The position numbers and the translations under genes are program-made. From Kitasatospora albolonga (GTDB lineage Bacteria > Actinomycetota > Actinomycetes > Streptomycetales > Streptomycetaceae): 64,000 nt of DNA. The first letter of the stretch is position 1; every line of letters begins with the position of its first letter. The notes under the pieces were generated by a model. It had not been told where the DNA came from, made no database searches, and saw only the letters and a program-made list of their open reading frames with translations. Below are positions 3,276 through 61,956 of the stretch, piece by piece. Location of the stretch: NCBI GenBank assembly GCA_002082585.1, contig CP020563.1, positions 3,652,001 through 3,716,000 on the forward strand, in the 5' to 3' direction.

Positions 3276-3328
3276 GCGGCCACCGCCCGGGACACGCCTG
3301 CCGTCCCACCGGCGTCCCGCCCGTACGG

Positions 3329-3364
3329 CGACGGCCGCGCCCGGATCACCGGGCGCGGCCGTCG
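3329..3364. terminator. Perfect 16-bp hairpin, bidirectional terminator
   Basis: CGACGGCCGCGCCCGG, an ATCA tetraloop, then the exact reverse complement. It lies between the convergent decarboxylase and SARP genes. There is no U tract, as is common for terminators in these organisms. Confidence 0.85.
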
Positions 3365-3395
3365 GGGCCGTCACGGCTGTTGGCCGTCGGGCCGT

Positions 3396-10046: not shown

Positions 10047-10073
10047 ACCGGCCCGAGCATCAGGAGCATCATC

Positions 10074-47097: not shown

Positions 47098-47133
47098 GTG
47101 GGGCACGTGAGAGAAGTGGGGCACGTGAGACAG
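47098..47133 (+). repeat. 18-bp tandem duplication at the response regulator start, containing CACGTG twice
   Basis: GTGGGGCACGTGAGAGAA followed by GTGGGGCACGTGAGACAG. It multiplies possible GTG starts and puts two palindromes CACGTG 18 bp apart. Confidence 0.85.
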
Positions 47134-47853: not shown

Positions 47854-48612
47854 TCACACCCCCGCCCCCTCCAGCCGCCGCAGCAGCGGGTGGTGTGCCT
47901 CGTCCCTCTCGCCCACCAGCCGCCGCGCCCACCAGGCCGACGCCAGGTTCGAGGTCAGCAGCGTGCGGTGCGGCTCCTGCCGGGCCAGCTCGGTGAGGGC
48001 GGCGAGCGTGCCCATGCCCGTACCCGTGAAGAGCAGGGCCGTTCCGGCGGGCAGCTCCCGCTCCCGCAGGCGCCGCAGGACCGTCCCGGTCGTCACCGCG
48101 TACGGGTCGTAGCGCGCGTCCCCGTCCGGTGCCGCCGCCTCCTCCGCGGGGACGGACACCACCCCGTCGACCGTCAGCCCGGCCCGCTCCCAGAAGGCGC
48201 GGGAGGTGTCGGTGAGCCACGGCTCGTACGGGGACACGAGCGTCAGCCGGGTCGCCCCGAGCGCCTCGCAGGCCGCGAGGATCGCCTGCGTGGAGGAGTA
48301 CACGGGAAAGCCGGCCCGACCGGAAAGCTCCTCGCAGAAGGCCCGGTCACCGTCCGGTTCCAGCAGGTAGTGCGAGGCGCTGCACGCGACCACGGCGGCG
48401 TCCAGCCGCAGCGCGCCGAAGCTGCCGAGCAGCGCGGGCAGCACCTCGTTGTACGTCTCCAGCATGGCCCTGAGCCCGGCCCCCGGAGTGACCGGGAACC
48501 GGGCGGTGTACACATTCATTCCGGCGCCGAGCAGATGGTTGAACTCGGGTTCCGCCGTGGGGTTTTCCGGCGGTACGACGACCCCTAGCCGGGGCAGCGA
48601 GAAGAGATCCAT
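47854..48612 (-). CDS. Maleate isomerase / arylmalonate decarboxylase-type protein (Asp/Glu racemase superfamily)
   Basis: 252 residues. LGVVVPPENPTAEPEFN at the N-terminus is typical of the maleate cis-trans isomerase/arylmalonate decarboxylase family, with the first active-site Cys in VVACSASHYL (about residue 77). At the place of the second Cys the sequence reads LLFTGTGMGT, so only one of the two catalytic Cys is visible: the mirror of arylmalonate decarboxylase, which has only the second. It may isomerise, racemise or decarboxylate a small dicarboxylate. Divergent from the metallolyase gene at the head of the carrier-protein cluster; membership is likely but unproven. Confidence 0.78.
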   Translation of the reverse strand: MDLFSLPRLGVVVPPENPTAEPEFNHLLGAGMNVYTARFPVTPGAGLRAMLETYNEVLPALLGSFGALRLDAAVVACSASHYLLEPDGDRAFCEELSGRAGFPVYSSTQAILAACEALGATRLTLVSPYEPWLTDTSRAFWERAGLTVDGVVSVPAEEAAAPDGDARYDPYAVTTGTVLRRLRERELPAGTALLFTGTGMGTLAALTELARQEPHRTLLTSNLASAWWARRLVGERDEAHHPLLRRLEGAGV

Positions 48613-48841: not shown

Positions 48842-49996
48842 ATGACAGCAGAAGGCCCCGAGAAACTGGAGAGACCGCCCCGGATATCGGACGCGACGCT
48901 CCGGGACTCCGCGCACATGGCGGGCGTCGAATTCGGCCCGCAGGACGCCGCCGCCATCGCGGACCTGCTGGTGCGCACGGGCGTCGAGCTCGTCGAGGTG
49001 GGCATGGTCTCCGGCCCGGACTCCAAGGACGCCGACCTCGTCCTCGCCACCCACGAGGCCGTCGGCCCCGAGCGCAGCATGACGCTCCTCGTCGTGCGCG
49101 ACCGCCGTCAGGTCGCCCGCGCGCTGGACGAGGCCGAGCGGCTGGGCGTGCGCCACATCATGTACTCGATCCCCACCTCCGAGCAGCACGCCCAGCTGAA
49201 GCTGGACTCGGCGAGCCCCAAGTTCCTCCAGGCGCTGGCCCGTTCGGCTATCCAGCAGGCGAAGGAGCGCGGCTTCCACGTCACGTTCAGCGGTGAGGAC
49301 GGCGCCCGTACGCCCAAGGAGCGGCTCGTCCCCTATGTGGAGGCGGGGTTCGCGGCGGGGGCCGACCGGTTCCGGCTCGCGGAGACGGTCGCGTACCTCT
49401 CGCCCTGGCAGATGCAGGAGGTGATCGCGGACCTCACCGCGATCGACGGCTCCGAGATCGAGATCCACTCGCACAACATGCTGGGCCTGGCCGTCGCCAA
49501 CTCCCTGGCCGCCGTGCGGGCGGGCGCCCAGTGGATCTCCGCGACCGTCGGCGGCATCGGTGAGCGCGGCGGCAACGCCCCGCTGGCCGAGCTGCTCACC
49601 GCGCTGCGCGTCATCCACGGCGACACCCGCTTCGACCTCACGCACCTCACCGAGCTCTCCCGGATCGCCCTGAGCGGTGCCGGTCTCGGGGACGCCTTCC
49701 AGTCCGGGCCGACCACCCCGCACGCCTTCGCCTACGAGCTGCCGGGCCAGCTGAGCCACCCGCACGCGTACGAGACACTCCCCGCCGAACTCGTCGGCAA
49801 CCGGCGCGAGTTGCGCGTCCGCAGCCGCCTCACCACCGCCCTGGTCCGCTGGGCCCTGGACGATGCGGGGCCGGCCGTCGACGTGGACGCCTTCACCGCG
49901 TGGCTGGCCGAGCGGCAGGAGCGGGACGGCCGCCCGCTGCTGGACCGGGACACGATCCGCGAGGCCGCCGCCGACTTCCGCCCCGTACCGGCGTAA
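48842..49996 (+). CDS. DRE-TIM metallolyase (HMG-CoA lyase / homocitrate synthase / isopropylmalate synthase superfamily)
   Basis: 384 residues. The superfamily motif appears as SDATLRDSAHMAG near residue 17 (metal Asp and catalytic Arg-Asp retained), with metal ligands in IHSHNMLG (HxHN form; about 212) and the GIGERGGN loop (about 240). Such enzymes make or break C-C bonds next to a 2-oxo acid, usually with acetyl-CoA. It lacks the C-terminal allosteric domain of isopropylmalate synthase. ATG 48842 follows GGAGGAG at 8 nt. First gene of the carrier-protein operon, 28 bp before it; I infer that it builds the carbon skeleton of an unusual 2-oxo acid that becomes the amino acid substrate. Confidence 0.85.
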   Translation: MTAEGPEKLERPPRISDATLRDSAHMAGVEFGPQDAAAIADLLVRTGVELVEVGMVSGPDSKDADLVLATHEAVGPERSMTLLVVRDRRQVARALDEAERLGVRHIMYSIPTSEQHAQLKLDSASPKFLQALARSAIQQAKERGFHVTFSGEDGARTPKERLVPYVEAGFAAGADRFRLAETVAYLSPWQMQEVIADLTAIDGSEIEIHSHNMLGLAVANSLAAVRAGAQWISATVGGIGERGGNAPLAELLTALRVIHGDTRFDLTHLTELSRIALSGAGLGDAFQSGPTTPHAFAYELPGQLSHPHAYETLPAELVGNRRELRVRSRLTTALVRWALDDAGPAVDVDAFTAWLAERQERDGRPLLDRDTIREAAADFRPVPA

Positions 49997-50024
49997 CCCA
50001 CCCCACCTCTCAACGGAGTTCACG

Positions 50025-50213
50025 ATGTCCACCGCCACCACCCTGACCGGCGTATGCCCCGAGTGCGAGACCGACCTGACCGTCCCCCCGGTCACCCTGG
50101 GCGAGACCCTCTCCTGCCCCGAGTGCATCCTGACCCTCCGCGTCGAGGCCGTCGAGGACGGCCGGCTGACGCTGGAGATGGTCGAGGTGCAGCTGCGCGA
50201 CTGGGGCCAGTGA
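50025..50213 (+). CDS. LysW-like amino-group carrier protein (AmCP) with C-terminal Gln
   Basis: 62 residues. A zinc ribbon with Cys11, Cys14 (CPEC) and Cys31, Cys34 (CPEC), an acidic body, and the C-terminus RDWGQ. Known LysW proteins end in (E)DWGE and carry the substrate amino group on the side-chain carboxylate of the last Glu, protecting it while the acid end is phosphorylated and reduced. Here the last codon is CAG (50208-50210), so Gln replaces Glu. GGAG precedes the ATG at 7 nt. LysX-, LysY- and LysZ-like genes follow directly, which makes the identification firm; the terminal residue is the odd point. Confidence 0.92.
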   Translation: MSTATTLTGVCPECETDLTVPPVTLGETLSCPECILTLRVEAVEDGRLTLEMVEVQLRDWGQ

Positions 50214-50214
50214 G

Positions 50215-51123
50215 ATGGGCGCTCCCCGCCCCGGTGCGCCCATCGCTTCCGGCACGCCCGTGGCTTCCGGCACGCCCGTCGCCTCCGTCGGGCTCGTCGC
50301 GGACCGGATCGCCTGGGAGGAACGCCTGCTCATCGAGGCGGCCCCGGCGTTCGGCCTCCGGATCGACTGGGTCAACGACGAGTCCCTCTCCCTCGGCCAC
50401 CCAGACGCCCCCGCGATCAAGGGGTACGACACCCTCCTCGTCCGCAGCCGCAGCTACACCCGGGGCGGGCTGATCGCCACCCTCGCCGAGGCGGCCGGTG
50501 TCCCCACGCTCAACACCGCCCGCGCCATCCACGCCTGCGAGAACAAGGCCGCTCTGCGCGCCCTGTTGCAGACGGCGGGCGTGCCGGTCCCCGACCACCG
50601 GCTCGTCCTCTCCCGCAAGGACTTCGCCAAGGCCCTGGCCGATCTGCCGCTCCCCCTCGTCCTCAAGCCGGTCTTCGGCGGGATGGGCAAGCGGGTCACG
50701 CTGATCCGGCACGCCGACACCGCGCACTCCGTGTACGACTACGTCGAGGATCTGGCCCACGCCTTCGAGCAGGCGAGCCTGGTGGAGCCGTACCTCGGCG
50801 GCAGCTCGGTGCGGTGCCTGGTGGTCGGGCGGGAGCTCGTCGGAGCGGCGGAGTTCGAGAGCGGCGGCAGCGACTGGCGCAACAACGCGGCCCTCGGCAA
50901 CAAGAACCGCGCCATCGCCCACGACCCCGACGTCGTCAAGATCGTCGACGGTGTGGTGGACGTCCTCGGGCCCGGGATCTACGGGATCGACCTCTTCGCC
51001 ACCCCGGACGGCTACGTCGTCAACGAGGTCAACCACGCCCCCGGCTTCCGGGCGGTGGCCTCCGCCACCGGGGCGGACATCCCCTCGGCCATCGGCCGCT
51101 ATGTGCAGGAGCTGCTCGCATGA
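50215..51123 (+). CDS. LysX-like ATP-grasp ligase (amino acid : AmCP ligase)
   Basis: 302 residues of the RimK/LysX ATP-grasp family. Nucleotide-binding loop KPVFGGMGKRV near 145, and metal-binding IYGIDLF and VVNEVNHAPGF near the C-terminus. It would join an amino acid, by its amino group, to the C-terminal residue of the carrier, whose gene ends one base upstream. The first 25 residues are a repeat-derived tail (ASGTPVASGTPVAS); the true start could be internal. Whether it accepts aminoadipate, glutamate or another amino acid cannot be decided by eye, and its partner carrier ends in Gln. Confidence 0.9.
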   Translation: MGAPRPGAPIASGTPVASGTPVASVGLVADRIAWEERLLIEAAPAFGLRIDWVNDESLSLGHPDAPAIKGYDTLLVRSRSYTRGGLIATLAEAAGVPTLNTARAIHACENKAALRALLQTAGVPVPDHRLVLSRKDFAKALADLPLPLVLKPVFGGMGKRVTLIRHADTAHSVYDYVEDLAHAFEQASLVEPYLGGSSVRCLVVGRELVGAAEFESGGSDWRNNAALGNKNRAIAHDPDVVKIVDGVVDVLGPGIYGIDLFATPDGYVVNEVNHAPGFRAVASATGADIPSAIGRYVQELLA

Positions 51124-52175
51124 TCCGCGCAGGAGTCGTCGGTGCCTCCGGGCTCGCCGGCGGCGAACTCATCCGCCTCATCACCCAACACCCCGACCTG
51201 GAGCTGACGTTCCTCGGCGGCTCCTCCAGCGCCGGCCGCCGCCCCTCCGAGCTGCACCCCGGCCTCCGCAACGACCGGGGCCTGACCGTGCAGCCGGTCA
51301 CCGAGGAGGTCGCGGAGAAGGTCGACGTCCTCTTCCTGGCCACCCCGGCGCCGGTCTCGGCCGAGCTGTCCTCGCTGTTCGCCGACCGCGTTCCGGCGAT
51401 CGTGGACCTCAGCGGAGCGTTCCGCATCCGTACGCCGGAGCTGCACGACCGCTGGTACCCGAAGGTCAGACGGCGCACCGACCTGGCCGACCGATTCGTC
51501 TACGGCGTACCGGAGTTGATCGGCGACCAGCTGAAGGACGCGGCCCTCATCTCGCTGCCCGGCTGCTACGCCACCGCGATCACCCTGGGCCTGGCCCCGC
51601 TCACCCTCGGCCTCGGGCTCGACCTGAAGACGGTCGTCGTGGACGGCAAGAGCGGGTCCAGCGGCGGGGGCATCCAGCTGCGCACCTCGGACCTGCACCC
51701 GTTCCGGGCCGGGGCCATCGCCCCGTACTCCCCGACCGGGCACCGGCACGCCGCCGAGGTCGGGGACTTCCTGGAGCGGAGCAAGCCCGGCACCATCGGG
51801 AACCTGTCCATGTCGGCGTACGGCGTCCCCAACGTACGCGGTCTGCTGACCAGTTCGTACGTGTTCACCGACGAGAAGGTGGACCAGCGCGAGCTGAACC
51901 GGGCCTATCTGCGCTTCTACAAGGGGCGCCCGTTCGTCCGGGTGCGGCGGCACAACGAAACGCTGATCCCGGTGCCCGACCCGCAGGTGGTCCTCGGCTC
52001 CAACTACGCCGATGTGACGGTCCTGTTGGACGAGGAGGGCGGGCGGATCGTCGTGCTCGCCGCACTCGACAACCTGGTCAAGGGGGCGGCGGGGCAGGCC
52101 GTGCAGGTGACGAACCTGCGCTTCGGCCTGCCGGAGGAGACGGGGCTGACGCAGCAGCCGGTGATGCCCGCATGA
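51120..52175 (+). CDS. LysY-like carrier-bound acyl-phosphate reductase (ArgC family)
   Basis: 351 residues. N-terminal NAD(P)-binding GVVGASGLAGGEL, catalytic Cys in SLPGCYATA near residue 145, as in N-acetyl-gamma-glutamyl-phosphate reductases and LysY. Reduces the phosphorylated side-chain carboxyl of the carrier-bound amino acid to an aldehyde. Overlaps LysX-like and LysZ-like genes by 4 bp on each side. Confidence 0.92.
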   Translation: MIRAGVVGASGLAGGELIRLITQHPDLELTFLGGSSSAGRRPSELHPGLRNDRGLTVQPVTEEVAEKVDVLFLATPAPVSAELSSLFADRVPAIVDLSGAFRIRTPELHDRWYPKVRRRTDLADRFVYGVPELIGDQLKDAALISLPGCYATAITLGLAPLTLGLGLDLKTVVVDGKSGSSGGGIQLRTSDLHPFRAGAIAPYSPTGHRHAAEVGDFLERSKPGTIGNLSMSAYGVPNVRGLLTSSYVFTDEKVDQRELNRAYLRFYKGRPFVRVRRHNETLIPVPDPQVVLGSNYADVTVLLDEEGGRIVVLAALDNLVKGAAGQAVQVTNLRFGLPEETGLTQQPVMPA

Positions 52176-52996
52176 GCGCATCGCCTTCCACTCCTACGGT
52201 GGTCAAGCTCGGCGGCAGCTGCCTGGACGACCTCGACGGCAGCTGGTGGGACGACCTGGCCCGGCACGGCCAGGACAGCCCCCTGGTTCTCGTGCACGGC
52301 TGGTCCAAGCCGCTGAAGAAGCTCGACGCCCGCTACAGCGAACCGTCGGCGATCCTGCGCGACCGGTACGGCAACCAGAGCCGGTGGACCACCCCCGAGG
52401 TCATCGACGACATCAAGACCGTCAGCGCCGTGCTGGCCGAGGACGTCCTCGGGCGGCTGGAGCGGCGCGGTATCACCGCCGAGCGGCTGCTCGGCAGCGA
52501 CGGGCTGGTCAGCGCGGGCGAGGGTGAGCGCTGGTGGTGGCGGGAGAAGCAGCTTGTCGAGCTGGAGAACCTCGTCGGCCCGATCACCGGCGTCGACCCG
52601 GCCCCGCTGAAGAACCTCCAGCCGGGCCACGCCTATCTGGTCACCCCGCTGGCCCGGAACGCGGCGGGCCGGGAGGTCAACACCGACGCCGACCGGGCCG
52701 CCGCCGCGATCGCCGGGGCCACCGGCGCATCCGATCTCGTCCTGGTCACCGATGTCGCCCACCTGCTGATCGACGGCCACCCGGTGAGCCGGATCAGCGC
52801 CCGGGAGGCCGCCGCCTTCCGCGACAAGGGGGCGCGGGGCGGTATGCGCAAGAAGCTGCGGGCGGCGGGCGAGGCGCTGGAGCGCGGTGTCGAGCGGGTC
52901 GTCATCGGCAGCGCCGCCGTCACGGAGCTGCTGAACGGCACGACAGGCACGTTGATCACCGACGCACACGCCTCCGGGGAAGGAGCGAGCGCATGA
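52172..52996 (+). CDS. LysZ-like carrier-bound amino acid kinase (ArgB family)
   Basis: 274 residues, amino acid kinase fold: VVKLGGSC (residues 10-17), VLVHGWSK in place of the usual VHGGG, NTDADRAAAAIA (about 170) and GGMRKKL (about 228). It phosphorylates the distal carboxyl group of the carrier-bound amino acid for reduction by the LysY-like enzyme. In-frame 4-bp overlaps with both neighbours. Confidence 0.92.
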   Translation: MSASPSTPTVVKLGGSCLDDLDGSWWDDLARHGQDSPLVLVHGWSKPLKKLDARYSEPSAILRDRYGNQSRWTTPEVIDDIKTVSAVLAEDVLGRLERRGITAERLLGSDGLVSAGEGERWWWREKQLVELENLVGPITGVDPAPLKNLQPGHAYLVTPLARNAAGREVNTDADRAAAAIAGATGASDLVLVTDVAHLLIDGHPVSRISAREAAAFRDKGARGGMRKKLRAAGEALERGVERVVIGSAAVTELLNGTTGTLITDAHASGEGASA

Positions 52997-53562
52997 GCAG
53001 ATCCCGATCCCGCGTACTGGTCGTCAACAACGGAACGCTGTCGCTCAAGCAACTACGGGCCCGGTTCGACACATTGGGGTCGGACACGGAGACGGTCGAC
53101 GCGGCCTCCGTCCCTGCCCGGCTGAACGGCCGCTACCAGGCCATCGTGCTGAGCGGCACCAAGGTGCGCGCGTACGACAGCACGTTCTACAAGCCGCTGA
53201 TCGACCTGGTCACCACCGCCGACGTGCCGGTCTTCGGTATCTGCGGCGGGATGCAGATCCTCGGCGTCGCGGCCGGCGGCCGGCTCGCCGAGGGGCCGCA
53301 GCGGGTCGGCGGCTACGAAGCCCAGGTGGACACGGAGGAGCCGCTCTTCACCTACGTGAAGCCGACGGTAACCGTCTTCCACCGGCACACCCTCTACCTC
53401 CAGGAGGCCCCGCCGGGCTACCGCACGATCGGCCGCTCCGAGCACGCGCCCGTGGAGTTCCTGCGCTCGGACGACGGCCGTATCCACGGCGCTCAGGCCC
53501 ACCTGGAGTTCCGGAAGGACGGCCTGGAGATCCTGCGGGGCTTCGCGCAGCTCTACCAGTGA
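52993..53562 (+). CDS. Class I glutamine amidotransferase-fold hydrolase
   Basis: 189 residues. Complete catalytic triad: Cys84 in FGICGGMQ, His170 and Glu172 in GAQAHLEF. It is only the glutaminase domain, with no synthase domain. Class I enzymes hydrolyse gamma-glutamyl amides, and PuuD-like relatives cleave gamma-glutamyl isopeptide bonds. Standard AmCP pathways use a LysK-type M20 peptidase to release the product from the C-terminal Glu side chain; none is found here. I infer that this protein either releases the product by cutting the gamma-glutamyl bond or first deamidates the carrier's terminal Gln. It could also simply provide ammonia. Overlaps the kinase gene by 4 bp. Confidence 0.85.
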   Translation: MSRSRSRVLVVNNGTLSLKQLRARFDTLGSDTETVDAASVPARLNGRYQAIVLSGTKVRAYDSTFYKPLIDLVTTADVPVFGICGGMQILGVAAGGRLAEGPQRVGGYEAQVDTEEPLFTYVKPTVTVFHRHTLYLQEAPPGYRTIGRSEHAPVEFLRSDDGRIHGAQAHLEFRKDGLEILRGFAQLYQ

Positions 53563-53614
53563 CCCGGGCCCCCTTCCACCGCCCTCCGTCTTCGTACAGA
53601 ACAAGGACTTCGCC

Positions 53615-54775
53615 ATGAGCGCAGCAGGAGCAGCAGAAGCAGCAGCAGTGCCGGAAGAACCGCAGGACCCCGCCCTCACCGTCCACCTCAACGGCAGCGG
53701 CGGCGCCATCAAGGGCTGGGTGGTCATCGACACGCTCGTCGACGGCCTGGCGATGGGCGGCACCCGGATGACCACCGGGGTGAGCGAGGAGGAAGTCGCG
53801 GGCCTGGCCCGGGACATGACCGAGAAGTTCACCCTGGCCGGGTTGCGGATCGGCGGCGCCAAGGCCGGGATCGTGGCCGACGCCACGAACTCCGGGGGCG
53901 CGGCGCGCGAGGAGACCTTCCGCACCTTCGGCCGCACGGTGAAGCCGCTCCTGCACGGCGGCATCCACCTGGGCATCGACATGGGCGTCACCCCCGCCGA
54001 CCGGGCCGTCTTCTTCGAGGAGGCGAAGTACGACCCCCGCTACCGGCTCGGCGCCCCCGACATGCCGATCGACTGGCGTACGTACTACGAGCCCCTGATC
54101 GACGCCACCGGCCACGGGGTCGGGGTCGCCGCGATCACCGCCCTGGAGGCGAGCGGCCGCACCGAACCGGCCCGGGTCGTCGTGCAGGGCTTCGGCGCGG
54201 TGGGCCGGGCGGTGGCGCGGTTCCTGGAGGACCGGGGCCATATCGTCGTCGGCATCGCGGACATCCGGGGCACGATCAGCGCGGACCGGCTGCCGGTGGC
54301 CGAACTCGTCGCCATCACCGACCAGTTCGGGGCGATCGACCGCACCCGGCTGCCGCAGGACGTGAAGGTCTCCGCCGAACCGGACGCCTGGCTCGACGTG
54401 GACGCCGACATCCTGATCCTGGCCGCGCAGAAGTACGCGATCAACGCCGAGAACGCCCACCGCCTGCGGGCCGGCCTGGTGGTGGAGGGCGCCAACCTCG
54501 CCTCCAGCGCGGCGGCCAAGGAGAAGGTCGCCGCCTCCGGGGCCGCCCTGGTCCCGGGCGTGATCGCCAACATCGGCGGCGCGGCCTCCGCCGCCCTGGC
54601 CGTCACCCGGGTCGTCCCGTTCGACCTGGCGGCAGAGGCCCGTAAGGCGTGGGTCTTCGACTGGGTCGGCGCTCGGGTCCGGCACAACACCCGTGACCTG
54701 CTGGAGATCGCGGCCTCCCGCGCGGGCGACCCGCTGCCGGAGCTGCTCGCGGCCCGCCGGAAGGAGCGCGGATGA
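53615..54775 (+). CDS. Glu/Leu/Phe/Val dehydrogenase-type amino acid dehydrogenase
   Basis: 386 residues. Substrate domain with GLAMGGTRM and the catalytic Lys in RIGGAKAGI (normally GGGKxxI), NAD-binding VVQGFGAVGRAV (about 191) and VVEGANLASS (about 290). It interconverts a 2-oxo acid and an L-amino acid. AAGGA sits before ATG. With the metallolyase it may produce the unusual amino acid loaded on the carrier (inference). Confidence 0.88.
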   Translation: MSAAGAAEAAAVPEEPQDPALTVHLNGSGGAIKGWVVIDTLVDGLAMGGTRMTTGVSEEEVAGLARDMTEKFTLAGLRIGGAKAGIVADATNSGGAAREETFRTFGRTVKPLLHGGIHLGIDMGVTPADRAVFFEEAKYDPRYRLGAPDMPIDWRTYYEPLIDATGHGVGVAAITALEASGRTEPARVVVQGFGAVGRAVARFLEDRGHIVVGIADIRGTISADRLPVAELVAITDQFGAIDRTRLPQDVKVSAEPDAWLDVDADILILAAQKYAINAENAHRLRAGLVVEGANLASSAAAKEKVAASGAALVPGVIANIGGAASAALAVTRVVPFDLAAEARKAWVFDWVGARVRHNTRDLLEIAASRAGDPLPELLAARRKERG

Positions 54776-56733
54776 GCACGGCGGCGAGGGAGCGGCCGGT
54801 CCCGGAGGGGGCGACGGTGTCTGCCGTGGAGGGGGCGAGCGCGCCTGTCCCGGCGGAGGCGACCGCGTCTGCCGCAGAGGGGACAACCGCGTCTGTCCCA
54901 GCGGGGGCGACCGCGTCTGTCCCGCCAGGGGCGACCGCGTCTGCCGCAGAGGGGACAACCGCGTCTGTCCCGGCGGAGGCGACCGCGTCCGTCCCGGCGG
55001 AGGCGACCGCGTCCGTCCCGGCGGGGCGTGCCGCCGAGTACCGCCGTCGCGGCTGGTGGCGGTCGGAGACCTTCCTCGACGACCTGCGCCGCCAGGCGCA
55101 GGAGCGCCCCCACCACCTGGCCATCGCGGGCCGACGCGTGGCGGAGTCCCGTACGGACACCCTCACCTACGCCGAACTGGACCGGCTGACCGACCGGTTC
55201 GCGCTGGCCCTGCTCGAACTGGACGTGCGCCGGGGCGACTTCGTCGCCGTCCAGCTGCCCAACCGCTGGGAGATGGTGCCGCTGATCTTCGCCTCGATCC
55301 GGGTCGGCGCGGTCATCATCCCGATCTCGCCCATCTGCACGGAGGAGGAGCTGCGCCACCGCCTCGGCCTCACCGGGGCCCGGGTGTGTGTCACCCTCCC
55401 GGAGTGGTCAGGCACCCCACTGGCGGAGATCGCCACCCGCCTCAAGGACGAACTTCCCACCCTGGAACATGTGTTGGTGGTCGACGCCCCCCGGCCGCCG
55501 ACCGGCGCGCTCCCCTTCCACGAGCACTTCGTGGCCGAGGAGCGGGAGGAGCACGAGGGCGCCGCCATCCGGCTGGACGGGCTGGCGCTCGGCGCGGACG
55601 ATCCGTTCGTGGTGCTGTTCACCTCCGGCACCACGGGCCCGTCCAAGGGGGTGCTGCACAGCCAGAACACGGTCCACTCGGCCGTACGCGGGTACGTCGA
55701 CGCGTTCGGGGCGGGTGACGGCAAGGACGGCGGGAAGGGCCAGGACTGGGTGGCGGCCGTCTCCACGCCGCTCGTCCACTACTCCGGGTTCGCGCAGGGC
55801 GTCCTGGCCGGGGTGATGCTGGGCGGGACCGTCGCCTTCCAGGACGTACGCCGCAACGAGGCGCTGCTCGACCTGGTGGAGCGGTACGGCGCGACCCTCC
55901 TGTACGGGCCGCCCGCCACGCTCGCCGATGTGGCCGCCTCCCAGCGGGCCGAGCGGCGGGACACCAGCACGCTGCTCCATGTGGTGATCGGCTCGGCGCC
56001 GGTGCTCCAGGAGCTGGCCGACGAGGTCCACGAGACGCTGGGCGCCCGCGCCCACTCGCTCTGGGGCATGTCGGAGAACGGCCCCGTGACCACCACCCGG
56101 CCCGAGGACCCGGAGGGGTGGGCGGCGCGGAGCAACGGCCGCGCGATCGAGGCCATGGAGACCCGGATCGAGACCTCGGAGGCGTACGGGAGCGGGGGCG
56201 CGGGCGAGGGTGCGTACGGGAACGGGGGCGCGGGGGCCACGGGCACGGTCGGCCGGCTGAAGGTGCGCGGCGCGTCCCTCGCGCTCGGGTACCACCGGCG
56301 CCCCGAGGCGTTCGCGGCCGAGCTGGACGAGGACGGCTGGTTCGACACGGGCGACCTCGCCCGGGACGACGGCCGGGGTGGCATCCGCATCATCGGCCGG
56401 GCCCGGGACGCTGTCCTGCGGGACGGGCAGGTGGCGCCGATGACCGAGCTGGAGGCGGTGATCGGCAGCCACCCGAAGGCGACCGAGGCCGCGCTGGTGG
56501 GGCTGGAACCGCTGGGCGGGGAGGGCGAGTTGATTGTCGCCGTCGTGGTCCCGCGCGGCGGGGAGGGCCCCACGCTCGACGAGGTCCGCGCCCGGGTCAC
56601 GGAGGCGGGCCACGACGCCCGCTTCCTGCCCGACCGGGTGGAGCTCGTCCCCGCCCTCCCGAAAACGCTGACCGGAAAAGTCCGCAAGGCGGAGCTGCGG
56701 GAACGGTACGCGCCGACGACCGCCTCCACCTGA
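54772..56733 (+). CDS. Acyl-AMP/acyl-CoA ligase with N-terminal repeat tail
   Basis: 653 residues, over 80 longer than the usual acyl-CoA ligase because of an N-terminal Ala/Thr/Ser/Val repeat (about residues 8-85, units EATASVPA). The ligase proper has LFTSGTTGPSKG (about 285), WGMSENG, FDTGDLARDD (about 524) and the C-terminal Lys in KTLTGKVRK. It resembles cyclohexanecarboxylate/medium-chain acyl-CoA ligases. ATG overlaps the previous stop. It may activate a pathway acid, or link the product to another unit; the substrate is not deducible. Confidence 0.87.
   Translation: MSTAARERPVPEGATVSAVEGASAPVPAEATASAAEGTTASVPAGATASVPPGATASAAEGTTASVPAEATASVPAEATASVPAGRAAEYRRRGWWRSETFLDDLRRQAQERPHHLAIAGRRVAESRTDTLTYAELDRLTDRFALALLELDVRRGDFVAVQLPNRWEMVPLIFASIRVGAVIIPISPICTEEELRHRLGLTGARVCVTLPEWSGTPLAEIATRLKDELPTLEHVLVVDAPRPPTGALPFHEHFVAEEREEHEGAAIRLDGLALGADDPFVVLFTSGTTGPSKGVLHSQNTVHSAVRGYVDAFGAGDGKDGGKGQDWVAAVSTPLVHYSGFAQGVLAGVMLGGTVAFQDVRRNEALLDLVERYGATLLYGPPATLADVAASQRAERRDTSTLLHVVIGSAPVLQELADEVHETLGARAHSLWGMSENGPVTTTRPEDPEGWAARSNGRAIEAMETRIETSEAYGSGGAGEGAYGNGGAGATGTVGRLKVRGASLALGYHRRPEAFAAELDEDGWFDTGDLARDDGRGGIRIIGRARDAVLRDGQVAPMTELEAVIGSHPKATEAALVGLEPLGGEGELIVAVVVPRGGEGPTLDEVRARVTEAGHDARFLPDRVELVPALPKTLTGKVRKAELRERYAPTTAST
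54808..55026 (+). repeat. 24-bp tandem repeat at the 5' end of the ligase gene
   Basis: Degenerate GCGACCGCGTCTGTCCCGGCGGAG units, roughly nine, two of them alternating with GCCGCAGAGGGGACAACC. Translate to A-T-A-S-V-P-A-E repeats. A start after this block (no good candidate seen) would give a normal-length ligase. Confidence 0.82.
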
Positions 56734-56762
56734 TCCCACCCACCCCCAGCCCTGGAGCCGTC

Positions 56763-58097
56763 ATGCCCGAACCCCCGCCCACCTCGCCGCCTTCGGCACC
56801 CGCCCCCGCCCCCGTCCCCATGTCGGCGACCCTCGCCGCCGATGAGGCTCTGGCCCGGCGGCGGCGGGCCGGGGAGCGGGTCCTGTCGATGGCCAGCGGG
56901 GAGATCGGCCTGCCCGTCCTCCCCGCGCTCAGGGACCGGCTCGCGGCAGCGGCCGGTGAGAACGCGTACGGCTCCGTCGCCGGAAGTCCCGCCCTCCGTA
57001 CGGCCGTTGCCGGGTACTGGGAGCGGCGCGGGCTGGCCGTCGACCCGGGGCTCGTCGTGGCGGGCCCGGGGAGCAAGTCGCTTCTCTTCGCCGTGCTCCT
57101 GGCCATCGGCGGGGACGTGATCGTGCCGGTGCCGAGCTGGGTGAGCTACGCGGCCCAGGCCCGGCTGGCGGGGGCGCGGCCCGTCCCCGTACCGATCCTG
57201 CCGGGGCAGGGCGGGGTGCCCGATCCGGACCGGCTGCGGGAGGCGGTCGCCGACGCGCGGGCCGCCGGGCAGAACCCCCGGGCCGTGGTCGTGACCGTGC
57301 CGGACAACCCGACCGGCACGGTCGCCTCGGCCGCCACCGTACGGCGGCTGGCGGCGGCGGCCCGCGAACTGGACCTCGTCATCGTCTCCGACGAGATCTA
57401 CGGCGACCTGGTGTACGCGGGCTCCGACCCGGCCGTGTCCCCGGCCCTGCACGCGCCGGAGCGGACCGTCGTCACCACCGGTCTGACCAAGAACCTGGCG
57501 CTCGGCGGCTGGCGTACGGGGGTGGCCCGGCTGCCCGACAGCGCGCCGGGGCGCGCCCTGCACACCCGGCTGGTCGCGGTCGCCAGCCAGATCTGGTCGA
57601 GCCCGCCCGCTCCGGTGCAGACGGCGGCGGCGTACGCGTTCGGGGAGCCGCCGGAGGTCGTCGAGCGCGTCGCGGCGAGCCGGCGGCTGCACGAGAAGGT
57701 GGTGCGCGCGGTCGCCGCCCGCTTCACCGCCGTGGGCGCGGAGCTCGCCCCCGTCGCGGCGACCTGCTACCTCTACCCGGACTTCGAGCCCCTGCGGGAG
57801 CACCTGGCGGCCGCGCACGGCGTGCACGACGGCGACGGTCTGGCCGCGCTGTTCTCGGAGCGGTACGGGGTCGGCGTCCTGCCCGCGAGCGCGTTCGGGG
57901 AGCCCGGCCGCCCACTGCGCATCCGGGCGGCGACCAGCCACTTCTACGGCGGGACCGACGTTCGGCGCACGGCGGCGCTGGAGGCGGCGGACCCGCTCGC
58001 CCTGCCGTGGATACGGGAGTCGGTCGACCGGGTCGGCGAGGTCCTGGCCGACCTGGCTGGGGCGCGGGCCCCCGCCGCTCTCGCCCCGCACCCCTGA
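56763..58097 (+). CDS. PLP-dependent aminotransferase, class I/II
   Basis: 444 residues. After a Pro-rich lead (1-20), the fold-type I core shows GSVAGSPALRTAVAGYW, DNPTGTVA, DEIYGDLVY and the PLP lysine in TTGLTKNLALGGWRTG (about 245), with the phosphate-binding Arg nearby. Type of the aspartate aminotransferase family, not class III like LysJ. It could aminate an aldehyde or ketone intermediate or supply the amino acid; the cluster already has a dehydrogenase for the latter. ATG 56763 is 30 bp after the ligase stop. Confidence 0.88.
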   Translation: MPEPPPTSPPSAPAPAPVPMSATLAADEALARRRRAGERVLSMASGEIGLPVLPALRDRLAAAAGENAYGSVAGSPALRTAVAGYWERRGLAVDPGLVVAGPGSKSLLFAVLLAIGGDVIVPVPSWVSYAAQARLAGARPVPVPILPGQGGVPDPDRLREAVADARAAGQNPRAVVVTVPDNPTGTVASAATVRRLAAAARELDLVIVSDEIYGDLVYAGSDPAVSPALHAPERTVVTTGLTKNLALGGWRTGVARLPDSAPGRALHTRLVAVASQIWSSPPAPVQTAAAYAFGEPPEVVERVAASRRLHEKVVRAVAARFTAVGAELAPVAATCYLYPDFEPLREHLAAAHGVHDGDGLAALFSERYGVGVLPASAFGEPGRPLRIRAATSHFYGGTDVRRTAALEAADPLALPWIRESVDRVGEVLADLAGARAPAALAPHP

Positions 58098-58141
58098 TCT
58101 CACCCGATTCACCGACGTAACGACGAACGAAGGAGCCACCG

Positions 58142-59107
58142 ATGTCCCACTCCCACCTGCCCGTCCTCTTCGAGGCCCTCTACAACGGCGAACGCCACGT
58201 CGGCTTCGGCCGCCCCGAGGAGGGCACCGAGCAGACCCTGTACCGGGTGGCGGACGGACAGGTCGCCGCCGCCTTCATCGCCACCGACGGATCGGAGGAG
58301 GCGCTGCGGGCCGCGCTCACCGAGGGGGCGGCGACCGTCACCGTCCCGGCCGGGGACCCGGGGCTGCGCCTGCTGCCGCCGCTCCTTCCGCAGGCCACCG
58401 GCAACGCCCTGCTGAGCGGTTTCATGGGCACGCACAAGAAGAAGTGGGGCGGCGAAACGGCCCCGGAGGACGGGGAGTTCACCCCGCCCAAGTGGTTCTT
58501 CAAGGGGTTCGGCGACTGGGTGCGGCTGCCTGGCGAGGACCTGAACGTGCCCGCCCGCCCGGTCGCCCTCATCGAGGAGCCGGAGGTCGCCCTCGTCTAC
58601 GTGAACGACGCCGACGGCACCCCGCACTACGCCGGTTACACCTTCGGCAACGACCTGTGCGACATCGGCCTGCACCGCCAGGACCCGGGCTACAACCCGT
58701 ACTGCAAGCTGTGCGACACCGCCCTCACCCCGTGGCTCTTCCTCGGCCCGCCGCCGCGCACGGTGACCGGCCGGGTCACCATCGTCCGGGACGGGGCGAC
58801 GGCCTGGGAGGGCCCGTTCGACTGCGGCGACGACGCCCTGTACTACCGGGTGCGGGACATGGCGGACCACCTGTTCACCTTCCCGGCGGTACGGCGGCCG
58901 GGGCTGGTCAACTACGTACTCCTGGGTGCCGACGAGGCGAGCTTCCACGACGGGTTCCGGATCGCCGACGGGGACCGGATCGCCATCGACGTGAAGAGCC
59001 ACGGGGTCGCCTTCGAGAACCGGGTGCGGTACGTCTCCCCCGCCCCGTCCACCACACCCCCGGCCGCCCCGGCCCCCGCCGCGACGGCTCCTGTCACCAC
59101 GGCATGA
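58142..59107 (+). CDS. FAH-superfamily (AraD1-like) protein
   Basis: 321 residues. The second half follows the fumarylacetoacetate hydrolase fold: EEPEVALVYVNDADG (metal-binding Glu segment, about 141), YAGYTFGNDLCDIGLHRQDP (about 163), CDTALTPWLFLGPPP and the terminal FRIADGDRIAIDVKSHGVAFEN. The family hydrolyses or dehydrates 3-oxo or 2-oxo acids using Mg2+. The closest type I can name is the AraD1 (2-keto-3-deoxyarabinonate dehydratase) group. ATG has GGAG upstream. In the carrier-protein cluster by direction and spacing (44 bp after the aminotransferase). Confidence 0.72.
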   Translation: MSHSHLPVLFEALYNGERHVGFGRPEEGTEQTLYRVADGQVAAAFIATDGSEEALRAALTEGAATVTVPAGDPGLRLLPPLLPQATGNALLSGFMGTHKKKWGGETAPEDGEFTPPKWFFKGFGDWVRLPGEDLNVPARPVALIEEPEVALVYVNDADGTPHYAGYTFGNDLCDIGLHRQDPGYNPYCKLCDTALTPWLFLGPPPRTVTGRVTIVRDGATAWEGPFDCGDDALYYRVRDMADHLFTFPAVRRPGLVNYVLLGADEASFHDGFRIADGDRIAIDVKSHGVAFENRVRYVSPAPSTTPPAAPAPAATAPVTTA

Positions 59108-59133
59108 ACTCCTCATGAAACAGACCGGGTTGA

Positions 59134-59159
59134 CCTGGGCAGACACCACCCCGCCCAGG
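59134..59159. terminator. Weak hairpin in the gap before the LLM genes
   Basis: CCTGGGC, 12-nt loop, GCCCAGG. It may terminate the carrier-protein operon or act as a leader structure for the flavin monooxygenase genes. Confidence 0.45.
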
Positions 59160-59227
59160 CACGCTCGGTAGGTCACACCGCCACCCCCCATCCACCACTG
59201 CCGGACTTCGCAGGAGGAGACCGCACC

Positions 59228-60679
59228 GTGCCCGCCACCACCAAGAAACAGGTGCATCTCGCAGCCCAGCTGCCCGGCATCCACAACGTGACCGTCTGGT
59301 CGGACCCGCGCTCCGAGAGCCAGATAGCCATCGACTCCTTCGTCCGGCTCGCGCAGACCATCGAGCGCGGGAAGTTCGACTTCTTCTTCCTCGCCGAGGG
59401 GCTGCGGCTGCGCGAGCACAAGGGGCAGGTCTACGACCTGGACATCGCGGGGCGCCCGGAGAACCTGACCGTGCTGAGCGCCCTGGCCGCCGTCACCACG
59501 CACCTGGGCCTCGCCGCCACGGTCAACGCCACCTTCAACGAGCCGTACGAGGTGGCGCGCCGGTTCGCCACCCTGGACCGGCTCAGCGGCGGACGGGCCG
59601 CCTGGAACGTGGTGACCAGCTACGACGCGTTCACCGGGGAGAACTTCCGCCGGGGCGGCTTCCTCCCGGAGGCCGACCGCTACACCCGGGCCGCCGAATT
59701 CCTCACGGCGGCACGGGAGTTGTGGGACAGCTGGGGAGAGGGGGACATCAAGGCCAACGCGGCGACGGGTGAGTTCGTCGCCGCCGGGGCCGGCCGCTTC
59801 GCCCACCGGGGGCAGCACTTCGACATAGCGGGCCGGTTCACCACCCCGCCCGGCCCGCAGGGGCACCCGGTGATCATCCAGTCCGGGGAGTCCGACGCGG
59901 GCCGGGAGTTCGCCGCGTCCGACGCCGAGGTCATCTTCAGCAAGCACAACCGGATCGACGTGGCCCGGGAGTTCTACCGGGACGTGAAGCGCCGCCTGGC
60001 CGCGTACGGGCGCAGCCCCGACGACCTGCTGATCCTCCCCACCGCCAACGCGGTCGTGGCGGACACCGACGAGGAGGCGGCAGCGTACGCGGAGGAGATC
60101 AGCCGCGAGCTGGTCAGCCCGCAGACCGCGATCGCCCACCTGGAGGCGGTCTGGGGCCGCGACCTCTCCGCGTACGACCCGGACGGGCCGCTCCCCGACA
60201 TCGAGCCCGAGGACGACGCCCACTTCCTGAAGGGGCACTCCGTCTTCCGCAAGGGCCGGGCGGAGACGGCCCGGCAGTGGCGCAAGCTCGCGGAGGAGCG
60301 GAACCTCTCCATCCGGGAGCTGGTCATCGAGGTCGGCGGGCGCCAGACGTTCGTCGGCAGCCCGCAGACGGTCGCGGACGCCATCGACGACTATGTACAG
60401 AGCGAGGGCGCCGACGGCTTCGTCCTCGTCCCCCACCTCACGCCCGGCGGGCTGGACGACTTCGTGGACCGGGTGGTGCCGATCCTCCAGGAGAAGGGCG
60501 TCCACCGCGACGACTACACCGGCACCACGCTCCGGGACCACCTGGGCCTGTCCGCCGCGCCCCGCCCGGCCGGCTGGGGCGGCCCCGGCCAGCCTCTGCG
60601 CACCGGACACGACCAGCCCGGCCGCGATCACACCGTGCGTGACCAGTCCGTGCGCGACGACAAGGAGACCTCCGCATGA
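59228..60679 (+). CDS. LLM-class flavin-dependent monooxygenase (NtaA/SnaA/DszA family), 1
   Basis: 483 residues, the length of the NtaA/SnaA/DszA subfamily. Visible: HLAAQLPG, FFFLAEGL, the NVVTSYDAFTGENF segment and FRRGGF, IIQSGESDAGREFAA, all typical of this branch. They oxidise N- or S-containing or imino compounds with FMNH2 made by a separate reductase; none is in view. GTG start with GGAGGAG 9 nt upstream. It follows a 120-bp gap, so it may be a separate transcript from the carrier genes. Confidence 0.9.
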   Translation: MPATTKKQVHLAAQLPGIHNVTVWSDPRSESQIAIDSFVRLAQTIERGKFDFFFLAEGLRLREHKGQVYDLDIAGRPENLTVLSALAAVTTHLGLAATVNATFNEPYEVARRFATLDRLSGGRAAWNVVTSYDAFTGENFRRGGFLPEADRYTRAAEFLTAARELWDSWGEGDIKANAATGEFVAAGAGRFAHRGQHFDIAGRFTTPPGPQGHPVIIQSGESDAGREFAASDAEVIFSKHNRIDVAREFYRDVKRRLAAYGRSPDDLLILPTANAVVADTDEEAAAYAEEISRELVSPQTAIAHLEAVWGRDLSAYDPDGPLPDIEPEDDAHFLKGHSVFRKGRAETARQWRKLAEERNLSIRELVIEVGGRQTFVGSPQTVADAIDDYVQSEGADGFVLVPHLTPGGLDDFVDRVVPILQEKGVHRDDYTGTTLRDHLGLSAAPRPAGWGGPGQPLRTGHDQPGRDHTVRDQSVRDDKETSA

Positions 60680-61956
60680 CCGGCACGAAGGGCGCCCCGA
60701 ACGGCGCGACCGGCACGACCGGCACCCCGGAAGAGACCGCCCCCGACCTCACCGCCCCGCTCCATCTGGCCGTGGCGCTGGACGGCGCGGGCTGGCACCC
60801 GGCGGCCTGGCGCGAGACGGGCGCCCGGCCCGGCGAACTGCTCGACGCCCCCTACTGGGCCGACCTGGTCGCCGAGGCCGAACGCGGTCTGCTCGACTTC
60901 GTCACCTTCGAGGACGCCCTCGGCCTCCAGTCCGCCGCCTTCCACCTCCCCGACGACCGCACCGACCAGGTCAGGGGCAGCATCGACGCGGTACTGCTCG
61001 CCGCCCACCTCGCCCCGCTCACCACGCACATCGGCCTGGTGCCGACCACCAACATCACCCACACCGAACCGTTCCACCTCGCCATCGGCATCGCCACCCT
61101 CGACCACGCGAGCAAGGGCCGGGCCGGCTGGCGCCCGCAGATAGCGTCCCGCGCCTCCGACTCGGCCCACTTCGGCCGCCGCACCACCCCCCAGCTCACC
61201 GAGGACGAGGTGGGCGACTCGGAGCTGATCTCCCAGCCGCTGCGCGCGCTCTTCACGGAGGGCGCCGAGGTGGTGGAGGCAGCACGGCGGCTCTGGGACA
61301 GCTGGGAGGACGGAGCGGAGATACGGGACGCGGCGACGGGCCGCTTCCTGGACCGCGACAAGGTCCACCACATCGACTTCCAGGGCAGCAACTTCAGTGT
61401 GAAGGGCCCCTCGATCACCCCGCGCACCCCCCAGGGCCAGCCGCCGGTGGTGAGCCTCGCGCACGCCACCGTCCCGTACGAGTTCGCCGCGCTCGGCTCC
61501 GATGTCGTCGCCATCACCCCGCACGACCGGGCGGGCACGGCGGCGATTCTCGCCCAGGTCGCCGAGGCGGTGGAGCGCACCGGCCGGGACGTGACGGACC
61601 GCCCCCTGCGCACCTTCGCCGACCTCATCGTCTTCCTGGACGACGAACCGGGCGCCGCCGCCCGCCGCAAGGCCCGCCTGGACGAGGCGGCCGGAGCCGA
61701 ACTCGCCTCCGACGCCGAGATCTTCACCGGCACCCCCGCCGAACTGGCCGACCTCCTCCTCGACTGGCGCTCCACCGGTCTGGACGGCTTCCGCCTCCGC
61801 CCGGCCGTCCTCCCGCACGACCTCACGGCGATCACCCGGGGCCTGGTCCCGGAGCTGCAACGGCGCGGGGTGTTCCGTACGGCGTACGCATCCACCACCC
61901 TGCGCGGCCACCTGGGCCTGGCCCGCCCGGCCAGCCGCTACGCGGCGGCGGGCTGA
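60676..61956 (+). CDS. LLM-class flavin-dependent monooxygenase, 2
   Basis: 426 residues, same superfamily as the preceding gene but more distant: DLVAEAERGLLDFVTFEDAL, GLVPTTNITHTEPFH, LDHASKGRAGWRPQ and FQGSNFSVKGPS are visible. ATG overlaps the first LLM stop by 4 bp, so they are translated together and might act on the same substrate in sequence or as a heteromer. A long-loop hairpin follows. Linked to the carrier cluster by location only. Confidence 0.88.
   Translation: MTGTKGAPNGATGTTGTPEETAPDLTAPLHLAVALDGAGWHPAAWRETGARPGELLDAPYWADLVAEAERGLLDFVTFEDALGLQSAAFHLPDDRTDQVRGSIDAVLLAAHLAPLTTHIGLVPTTNITHTEPFHLAIGIATLDHASKGRAGWRPQIASRASDSAHFGRRTTPQLTEDEVGDSELISQPLRALFTEGAEVVEAARRLWDSWEDGAEIRDAATGRFLDRDKVHHIDFQGSNFSVKGPSITPRTPQGQPPVVSLAHATVPYEFAALGSDVVAITPHDRAGTAAILAQVAEAVERTGRDVTDRPLRTFADLIVFLDDEPGAAARRKARLDEAAGAELASDAEIFTGTPAELADLLLDWRSTGLDGFRLRPAVLPHDLTAITRGLVPELQRRGVFRTAYASTTLRGHLGLARPASRYAAAG

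What the first reader, a model, noticed from the sequence alone, without database searches (positions are those of the whole stretch)
48842..61956. Amino-group carrier protein (LysW-type) biosynthetic cluster of unknown product
The window has a full LysW/LysX/LysY/LysZ set in a secondary-metabolite setting, not with lysine or arginine genes. Seen: zinc-ribbon carrier, ATP-grasp ligase, kinase and reductase in tight overlap, plus a DRE-TIM metallolyase, amino acid dehydrogenase, ligase, aminotransferase, FAH-type protein and two LLM flavin monooxygenases. Established: AmCP-mediated secondary metabolism is known from Streptomyces (vazabitide A, s56-p1). Inference: this enzyme combination differs from those in that it lacks transketolase/aldolase or hydrazine-forming genes, so a new non-proteinogenic amino acid (a carrier-bound semialdehyde that is then aminated or oxidised) is expected.
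Basis: partly seen in the sequence, partly recalled or inferred. Interest (0 to 1): 0.88.

Follow-up and report, generated by a model that had tools for sequence, protein, structure and literature searches.

The report
Glutamine-ended carrier cluster, probably for maleimide
This Streptomyces gene cluster is very probably a relative of the one recently shown to be needed for the small molecule iso-maleimycin, and its carrier protein ends in glutamine where known carriers end in the glutamate that holds their cargo, which points to a changed way of loading and releasing that cargo.

Summary
The product is not wholly unknown: PMC12022981 (2025) showed that a cluster with IPMS, LysW, RimK and an AMP ligase is needed for iso-maleimycin in Streptomyces sp. 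QL37 and named S. filamentosus, S. shenzhenensis and strain SM11 as holding similar clusters; the genomes of those names held here carry this gene set. QL37 itself was not available for alignment. What I found in no searched paper is the carrier chemistry. LysW here ends LRDWGQ, not EDWGE (118 of 120 listed homologues). The ligase motif that reads EDWGE, GSWGR, is GGMG[KR] in 63 of 63 family ligases. A LysK-type M20 hydrolase gene lies in 10 of 10 EDWGE-type Streptomyces clusters fetched and 0 of 62 loci of this family; F is the reverse, 0 of 10 and 61 of 62. Best reading: a maleimycin-type pathway on a divergent amino-group carrier, with a cysteine hydrolase in LysK's place that may also deamidate the carrier tail. 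Function of F and the route are inference; nothing biochemical was tested.

The parts
48842..49996 (+). A: DRE-TIM (HMGL-like) enzyme, distant from homocitrate/isopropylmalate synthases
   Evidence: PF00682 170 bits; best NCBIfam nifV 202 bits, far below its cut-off of 463; in 60 of 62 loci
50025..50213 (+). B: LysW-like zinc-ribbon carrier, 62 aa, C-terminus LRDWGQ
   Evidence: read from sequence; tail LRDWGQ in 118 of 120 listed homologues and 60 of 61 named loci
50215..51123 (+). C: LysX/RimK-type ATP-grasp ligase, carrier-reading motif GGMGK in place of GSWGR
51120..52175 (+). D: LysY/ArgC-type semialdehyde-forming reductase
   Evidence: TIGR01850 329 bits, over cut-off; GC[YF]AT kept in 63 of 63 rows
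52172..52996 (+). E: LysZ/ArgB-type amino-acid kinase
   Evidence: PF00696 85 bits; LysZ model 106 and ArgB 103 bits, both below cut-off
52993..53562 (+). F: class I glutamine-amidotransferase-like cysteine hydrolase (proposed carrier deamidase and/or product hydrolase)
   Evidence: PF00117 64 bits, PF07722 36 bits, both over cut-off; Cys and His-x-Glu motifs kept in 62 of 62 rows; in 61 of 62 loci
53615..54775 (+). G: Glu/Leu/Phe/Val-type amino acid dehydrogenase
   Evidence: PF00208 106 bits; in 59 of 62 loci
54772..56733 (+). H: AMP-binding ligase; closest model cyclohexanecarboxylate-CoA ligase; start uncertain, first ~85 residues not matched in relatives
   Evidence: TIGR03208 320 bits (cut-off 792; next model 251); in 59 of 62 loci; for the start
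56763..58097 (+). I: class I/II PLP enzyme (aminotransferase; GntC model best, below cut-off)
   Evidence: PF00155 156 bits; in 55 of 62 loci
58142..59107 (+). J: AraD1/FAH-superfamily protein
   Evidence: GguC model 133 bits, cut-off 340; AlphaFold2 model mean pLDDT 86 matching 2-keto-3-deoxyarabinonate dehydratase, TM 0.62; in 52 of 62 loci
59228..60679 (+). K: NtaA/DmoA-family FMN-dependent monooxygenase (optional member)
   Evidence: TIGR03860 428 bits; in 25 of 62 loci
60676..61956 (+). L: second LLM-type monooxygenase, same family, below cut-off (optional member)
   Evidence: TIGR03860 243 bits, cut-off 280; in 25 of 62 loci
47854..48612 (-). M: arylmalonate decarboxylase / maleate isomerase-like protein
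   Evidence: PF17645 38 bits; in 42 of 62 loci, among them all 25 with K
47098..47814 (+). N: OmpR-type response regulator
   Evidence: a match in 54 of 62 loci (not all need be orthologues)
45773..47077 (+). IS701-transposase-like protein that travels with the cluster
   Evidence: NF033540 276 bits; a match in 34 of 62 loci
44076..45335 (+). MFS transporter, likely export
   Evidence: PF07690 150 bits; a match in 53 of 62 loci (not all need be orthologues)
39273..43412 (-). Large SARP/AfsR-type regulator, outer limit uncertain
   Evidence: PF03704 139 bits; a match in 31 of 62 loci

Best explanation
The cluster belongs to the actinobacterial family that includes the iso-maleimycin cluster (BGC23a of Streptomyces sp. 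QL37) and most likely makes a maleimycin-type bicyclic maleimide on a divergent amino-group carrier. Shown by comparison: gene set and order; the same set in genomes of the three names given in the paper; the Gln-ended carrier; the changed ligase motif; a GATase-like gene where other such clusters have a LysK-type M20 hydrolase. Inferred: (1) F turns the carrier's C-terminal Gln into Glu; (2) LysX joins the alpha-amino group of an acidic amino acid, probably Glu, to it; (3) LysZ and LysY turn the far carboxylate into a semialdehyde; (4) A adds a two-carbon unit, giving a C7 chain; (5) F cuts the product off the carrier; (6) G and/or I turn the amine into a 2-oxo group; (7) J acts on this linear C7 2-oxo-diacid before or during ring closure to a cyclopentene-1,2-dicarboxylate; (8) H activates a ring carboxylate, and amide then imide formation follows; K, L and M adjust oxidation or geometry in some members. 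The confidence given is for family membership and product class; I rate the F-as-carrier-hydrolase idea about 0.4-0.45 and the whole route about 0.3.
For: PMC12022981 passages: IPMS-LysW-RimK tags in a row plus AMP ligase; lysW-rimK deletion lost iso-maleimycin; BGC23 in S. coelicolor with the lug genes gave it. S. filamentosus, S. shenzhenensis and SM11 named there are L035, L050, L053, each with A-J in order plus M; each genome has one strong LysW match, at this locus (S. filamentosus also one weak, E 0.033). S. filamentosus has MFS, IS701-like, N, M, A to L in the window's order. Carrier tail and ligase motif. M20 in 10 of 10 EDWGE-type loci versus 0 of 62; F 0 of 10 versus 61 of 62. L038 and L039 keep A-F without G-J, which ties F to the carrier module. 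J fold. H model.
Against: The QL37 and S. showdoensis sequences were not held, so no direct alignment; the strains of S. filamentosus and S. shenzhenensis in the paper are not stated in what I read. The paper prints one tag for both RimK and the AMP ligase. K and L are in only 25 of 62 loci, so products may differ among members. L065 has a Glu tail yet keeps F, so F is not needed for deamidation alone. L076 (outside the family) has a Gln tail with GSWGR. A has lost the His residues of Claisen-type synthases, so the two-carbon donor is a guess. F's nearest solved relatives are ordinary GMP-synthase amidotransferase domains.
Confidence: 0.72

Rival explanations
1. LysX here works like RimK: it activates the alpha-carboxylate of the C-terminal Gln and adds the amino acid by a normal peptide bond. 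The Gln side chain is not deamidated, and F is an ordinary amidotransferase that supplies ammonia, for example to ligase H for the imide.
For: The ligase's GGMG[KR] and AP[GA][FW] stretches differ from the LysX/ArgX motifs, and the latter recalls RimK-type sequences (recalled). F's best matches are GMP-synthase amidotransferase domains. An imide needs a nitrogen.
Against: F is kept in L038 and L039, which lack H (two related loci only). No M20 hydrolase is within the held flanks of any of 62 loci, so some other release enzyme is needed. Glu replaces Gln in L065 and 2 of 120 homologues, as expected if both end up as Glu, though this does not exclude the rival.
Confidence: 0.25
2. Same carrier family but a different end product: the window's subtype (with K, L and M) makes some other C7-derived metabolite, not a maleimide.
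For: K/L and M vary among loci (25 and 42 of 62); J and H are only 55-66% identical in the loci without M or K; L038/L039 show that module A-F can stand with other genes.
Against: S. filamentosus, named in the paper as holding a BGC23a-like cluster, has the window's full order including K, L and M; S. shenzhenensis and SM11 lack K and L in the held flank but have A-J and M.
Confidence: 0.25
3. A second arginine or lysine pathway of primary metabolism.
For: D passes the ArgC cut-off (328.6 bits).
Against: Higher-scoring argC and argB lie near 1.04 Mb, and E is under the ArgB cut-off. LysW of this kind is in only 13 of 295 Streptomyces genomes.
Confidence: 0.02

Closest known systems
iso-Maleimycin cluster BGC23a of Streptomyces sp. 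QL37 and the putative maleimycin cluster of S. showdoensis (PMC12022981)
   Same: IPMS-like gene, LysW, RimK-type ligase in a row, plus an AMP ligase; three names given as holding similar clusters match loci with this gene set
   Different: Could not be aligned here; the passages I read do not discuss the carrier tail, F or the enzymology; K/L content of QL37 not seen
AmCP secondary metabolism of Streptomyces (vazabitide A, s56-p1; cited in PMC9303977 and PMC9570651, passages seen)
   Same: LysW-type carrier with LysX, LysY, LysZ outside primary metabolism; Glu-derived C7 product (DADH)
   Different: EDWGE-type clusters fetched here have a LysK-type M20 gene and neither A nor F; I did not identify the vazabitide cluster itself among them
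LysW/ArgW lysine and arginine pathways (Thermus, Sulfolobus, haloarchaea; PMC10433800, passages seen)
   Same: Carrier, ligase, kinase, reductase logic
   Different: Carrier ends in Glu that is required (E54A auxotroph) and ligase has GSWGR; here Gln and GGMG[KR]
Pearlin / 3-thia-amino acid pathways (PMC9303977, passages seen)
   Same: Small amino acids built on the C-terminus of a ribosomal carrier
   Different: Different enzymes; the amino acid is added from aminoacyl-tRNA (PMC9016710, search listing)

Membership tests
Amino-group carrier protein (LysW/ArgW) system | Small zinc-ribbon carrier with CxxC pairs | tested here: met
   Four Cys invariant in 120 of 120 listed homologues
Amino-group carrier protein (LysW/ArgW) system | C-terminal EDWGE with the acceptor Glu | tested here: not met
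   LRDWGQ in the window and in 118 of 120 listed homologues; 2 of 120 LRDWGE
Amino-group carrier protein (LysW/ArgW) system | LysX-type ligase with GSWGR | tested here: not met
   Ligase present, but GGMG[KR] in 63 of 63 family rows; GSWGR in 11 of 11 other LysX-like proteins
Amino-group carrier protein (LysW/ArgW) system | LysZ-type kinase and LysY-type reductase beside the carrier | tested here: met
Amino-group carrier protein (LysW/ArgW) system | LysK-type M20 hydrolase in the cluster | tested here: not met
   0 of 62 loci within held flanks (up to 10 kb each side); 10 of 10 EDWGE-type loci have one
Amino-group carrier protein (LysW/ArgW) system | Amino acid joined by its amino group to the carrier | not testable with these tools
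   Needs mass spectrometry
iso-Maleimycin-type cluster (BGC23a) | IPMS-LysW-RimK in a row plus AMP ligase | tested here: met
   A-B-C order and H in the window
iso-Maleimycin-type cluster (BGC23a) | Same set in the other names given by the paper | tested here: met
   L035, L050, L053; strain identity not checked
iso-Maleimycin-type cluster (BGC23a) | Direct similarity to the QL37 locus | not tested
   QL37 sequence not held
iso-Maleimycin-type cluster (BGC23a) | Makes iso-maleimycin or maleimycin | not testable with these tools
   Needs culture and LC-MS
2-Isopropylmalate / homocitrate synthase (enzyme A) | His pair of the C-terminal catalytic stretch (FxHxxGxH in the solved relatives) | tested here: not met
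   Aligned positions are Tyr and Gln in 61 of 61 rows
Class I glutamine amidotransferase / Peptidase C26 (F) | Nucleophile-Cys motif and His-x-Glu | tested here: met
   [GA]ICGG[ML]Q and QAH[LV]E[FY] in 62 of 62 rows

The most novel reading that the evidence does not exclude
Actinobacteria hold a second class of amino-group carrier: it is encoded with a C-terminal glutamine, is read by its own ligase type (GGMG[KR]), and is served by a class I GATase-type cysteine hydrolase that both deamidates the tail to switch the carrier on and later cuts the finished cargo off, in place of LysK. The class feeds a C7 precursor into a maleimide pathway and, as a bare A-F module, into other products.
Probability: 0.4. 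Interest if true: 0.78.

Novelty: new variant of a known kind. Interest (0 to 1): 0.6.

Why it matters
iso-Maleimycin is the dienophile half of lugdunomycin, and the passages I could read do not explain how its ring and imide are built. The six-gene module A-F is a compact, testable unit. If the Gln tail is deamidated or used in another way, the rule that an amino-group carrier is encoded with an acceptor Glu changes, and genome searches that require EDWGE or LysK would miss this class. It also gives marker motifs (LRDWGQ, GGMG[KR], carrier-linked GATase) to find more such clusters.

Tried and rejected
Arginine/lysine pathway: rejected, separate argB/argC elsewhere. 'Unknown product': set aside after PMC12022981. 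F only as ammonia donor for H: weakened by L038/L039, which keep F but lack G-J; two related loci, not decisive. Strict pairing of Gln tail with the GGMG motif: rejected, L065 (Glu tail, GGMG[KR]) and L076 (Gln tail, GSWGR) break it; better stated as LRDWG with GGMG[KR] and [ED]EDWG with GSWGR. DapB-like gene before A in L039: looked like a clue to the intermediate, but it matches no other of the loci searched. Angucycline genes in this genome (a possible lugdunomycin maker): PF04673 found nothing, but its control rang nowhere, so no conclusion. A route from aspartate semialdehyde and pyruvate was thought through and dropped, as ring closure would have to join two carbonyl carbons (reasoning only). 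Searches for a Gln-ended LysW and for maleimycin biosynthesis listed nothing beyond PMC12022981 that bears on it; most subscription papers are not held, so an earlier report of the Gln tail cannot be excluded.

An alignment of A for folding was given up after two such refusals; the second structure job was not used. Ten of the 16 EDWGE-type loci were fetched with flanks, picked by hand. Only the 120 listed of 158 LysW homologues were examined. Apparent M20 hits in 17 loci of this family proved to fall on the kinase half of kinase-M20 fusion queries and were not counted.
Full report
WHAT IS THERE. The window lies at 3,652,001-3,716,000 of an 8.03 Mb single-contig genome, taken to be a Streptomyces because its nearest relatives are. 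I read the genes 48842-61956 directly and scanned them with Pfam and NCBIfam. One gene was missed: F, 52993-53562, a 189-aa class I glutamine-amidotransferase-like protein (PF00117 64 bits, PF07722 Peptidase_C26 36 bits, both above cut-off) that overlaps the end of the kinase gene. Its closest solved relatives by sequence are GMP synthase amidotransferase domains, and the Cys and His-x-Glu motifs are kept in 62 of 62 rows.

IT IS A FAMILY OF CLUSTERS. One scan of the species-genome collection with LysX gave 64 loci, 62 of them (L013-L074) actinobacterial with 66-97% identity. tblastn of the window's genes matched, out of these 62: A 60, B 61, C 62, D 62, E 61, F 61, G 59, H 59, I 55, J 52, K 25, L 25, M 42, N 54. 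Some absences are contig ends (for example L073, L068, L070; lengths). L038 and L039 hold A-F without G-J, and J has no match at E 1e-5 in either genome. All 25 loci with K also have M. Upstream, the MFS gene has a match in 53, the IS701-like gene in 34 and the SARP-type regulator in 31 of 62 loci; for MFS and N not every match need be an orthologue. S. filamentosus has MFS, IS701-like, N, M and A to L in the window's own order. In a sample of 295 Streptomyces genomes the family LysW is in 13, the window's own included, so the cluster is patchy.

THE PRODUCT FAMILY IS KNOWN. PMC12022981 (sections 5 and 8 read in full, and passages of the abstract, introduction and sections 6, 7, 9, 11, 12 and 13) reports BGC23a of Streptomyces sp. 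QL37: a 2-isopropylmalate synthase, LysW, RimK and an AMP ligase (the text prints the same locus tag for the last two). A lysW-rimK deletion lost iso-maleimycin and lugdunomycin; adding BGC23 to S. coelicolor M1152 with the lug genes gave both. The paper says BGC23a resembles the putative maleimycin cluster of S. showdoensis and that 27 strains hold a similar cluster, naming among those with an angucycline cluster S. filamentosus, S. shenzhenensis and SM11. Genomes of these names are my L035, L050 and L053. All three carry A-J in order with M; N is beside M in L035 and L053 and inverted further off in L050; K and L are in L035 only, within the held flank. In each of the three genomes the window's LysW has one strong match, at this locus; S. 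filamentosus has one more, weak, at E 0.033. I therefore file the window with that family by gene set and order, but I could not align it with QL37 itself, and strain identity was not checked.

THE CARRIER IS NOT A STANDARD ONE. PMC10433800 (passages) states that LysW/ArgW carriers have an EDWGE motif whose last Glu is the attachment site, that an E54A mutant is an arginine auxotroph, and that a GSWGR motif in LysX/ArgX recognises EDWGE. The window's carrier ends LRDWGQ. Of 158 homologues found, the 120 listed were examined: 118 end LRDWGQ and 2 LRDWGE. Of 61 named loci with the gene, 60 end LRDWGQ and one, L065 (Actinopolyspora alba), LRDWGE. The ligase reads GGMGK (61) or GGMGR (2) in 63 of 63 family rows, and GSWGR in 11 of 11 other LysX-like proteins aligned with them (a LysW was seen beside five of those eleven). 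A conserved Glu after the NH motif is Gly or Ala in the family. Of the 28 loci read from the 295-genome sample, the 12 family loci all end LRDWGQ, with GGMG[KR] in the 11 where a ligase motif lay in the fetched stretch; the 16 others all end EDWGE, with GSWGR in the 6 where a motif was seen. One outside case, L076 (Microgenomates), has EEDWGQ with GSWGR, so the last residue alone does not decide the ligase motif.

THE RELEASE ENZYME SEEMS EXCHANGED. Ten EDWGE-type Streptomyces loci (L133-L142, ten of the 16 above) were fetched with about 6-10 kb on each side of LysW. A mutually similar M20 peptidase gene is in 10 of 10 (matches between loci, own matches left out; Pfam check of six M20 genes). 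F is in 0 of 10 (best E 0.077) and A in 0 of 10 (best E 1.0). In the 62 window-type loci the M20 domains match in 0 and F in 61; flanks there reach up to 10 kb from LysX, less at contig ends. PMC10433800 gives LysK as the homologue of ArgE in the carrier pathway; its release role and M20 type are recalled. Class I GATases act on gamma-glutamyl amides, and the cargo of a standard carrier hangs on such a bond (recalled chemistry). So F could both turn the tail Gln into Glu and free the product. That L065 has a Glu tail and still has F fits a second role for F; that L038 and L039 keep F without ligase H fits a role on the carrier rather than as H's ammonia source. These are inferences from few cases.

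A LIKELY ROUTE. Maleimycins are C7 imides (recalled). Glu plus two carbons gives C7, as for the C7 amino acid DADH made on a carrier (DADH from PMC9303977, passage; its carbon count by origin recalled). Kinase and reductase would give a carrier-bound semialdehyde and A would add the C2 unit; but in A the two His that align in homocitrate/isopropylmalate synthases are Tyr and Gln in 61 of 61 rows, so the donor is open. J was modelled (mean pLDDT 86, 23-sequence alignment); its best fold matches are 2-keto-3-deoxyarabinonate dehydratase structures (TM 0.62) and, lower, HpcE-type isomerases named for C7 2-oxo-diacids. H's best model is cyclohexanecarboxylate-CoA ligase, far below its cut-off, which would suit a cyclopentene carboxylate. 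G or I would supply the 2-oxo group. Closing a 4-hydroxy-2-oxoheptanedioate between C6 and C2 with loss of water would give a cyclopentene-1,2-dicarboxylate with the hydroxyl in the middle, which agrees with the paper's remark that the Diels-Alder partners are achiral. I rate this whole route at about 0.3.

VERDICT.

Noticed in passing
45773-47077 (+): IS701-transposase-like protein (276 bits) matched in 34 of 62 related loci, mostly between MFS and response regulator; the stretch before the conserved PK.G motif has no Asp-Asp/Glu-Thr in any of 35 aligned rows (the usual motif is recalled). Relatives elsewhere in S. filamentosus read alike (L095). Perhaps a transposase-derived regulator.
   Followed up: partly
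54772-55030: The ligase H opens with about 85 residues of imperfect Ala/Ser/Val/Pro-rich repeats that do not align in the nearest relative G005 or in S. filamentosus; either a later true start or a young repeat.
   Followed up: no
47854-48612 (-): M has the first-site Cys (in [VI][AS]C[SN][AG]SHYL) in 43 of 43 rows; the second stretch reads L[FC]TGTGM-like in the variants shown, so it matches neither two-Cys maleate isomerases nor arylmalonate decarboxylase cleanly (family motifs recalled).
   Followed up: partly
L039 7833-8579: S. aurantiacus JA 4570 has a DapB-like gene directly before A in a cluster that has A-F only; no match in the other loci searched.
   Followed up: partly
L108 and L130 (genome G016): One genome holds two Gln-ended LysW genes about 10 kb apart on one contig, the second without a ligase in its 3 kb stretch; L061 (S. 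echinatus) shows the same layout.
   Followed up: no
L076: A Microgenomates LysW ends EEDWGQ although its LysX has GSWGR: a Gln tail also outside this family.
   Followed up: no
L038, L039: Two Streptomyces loci carry the carrier module A-F without G-J, J being absent from the genomes at E 1e-5; P450, glycosyltransferase and LLM-type genes lie nearby in L039. Possibly a separate product.
   Followed up: partly
37-19281: Left part of the window holds another biosynthetic region: AMP-binding enzymes, a ketosynthase-acyltransferase-PP protein (8990-13504), a KAS III-like protein and a 2-oxoacid dehydrogenase acyltransferase domain.
   Followed up: no
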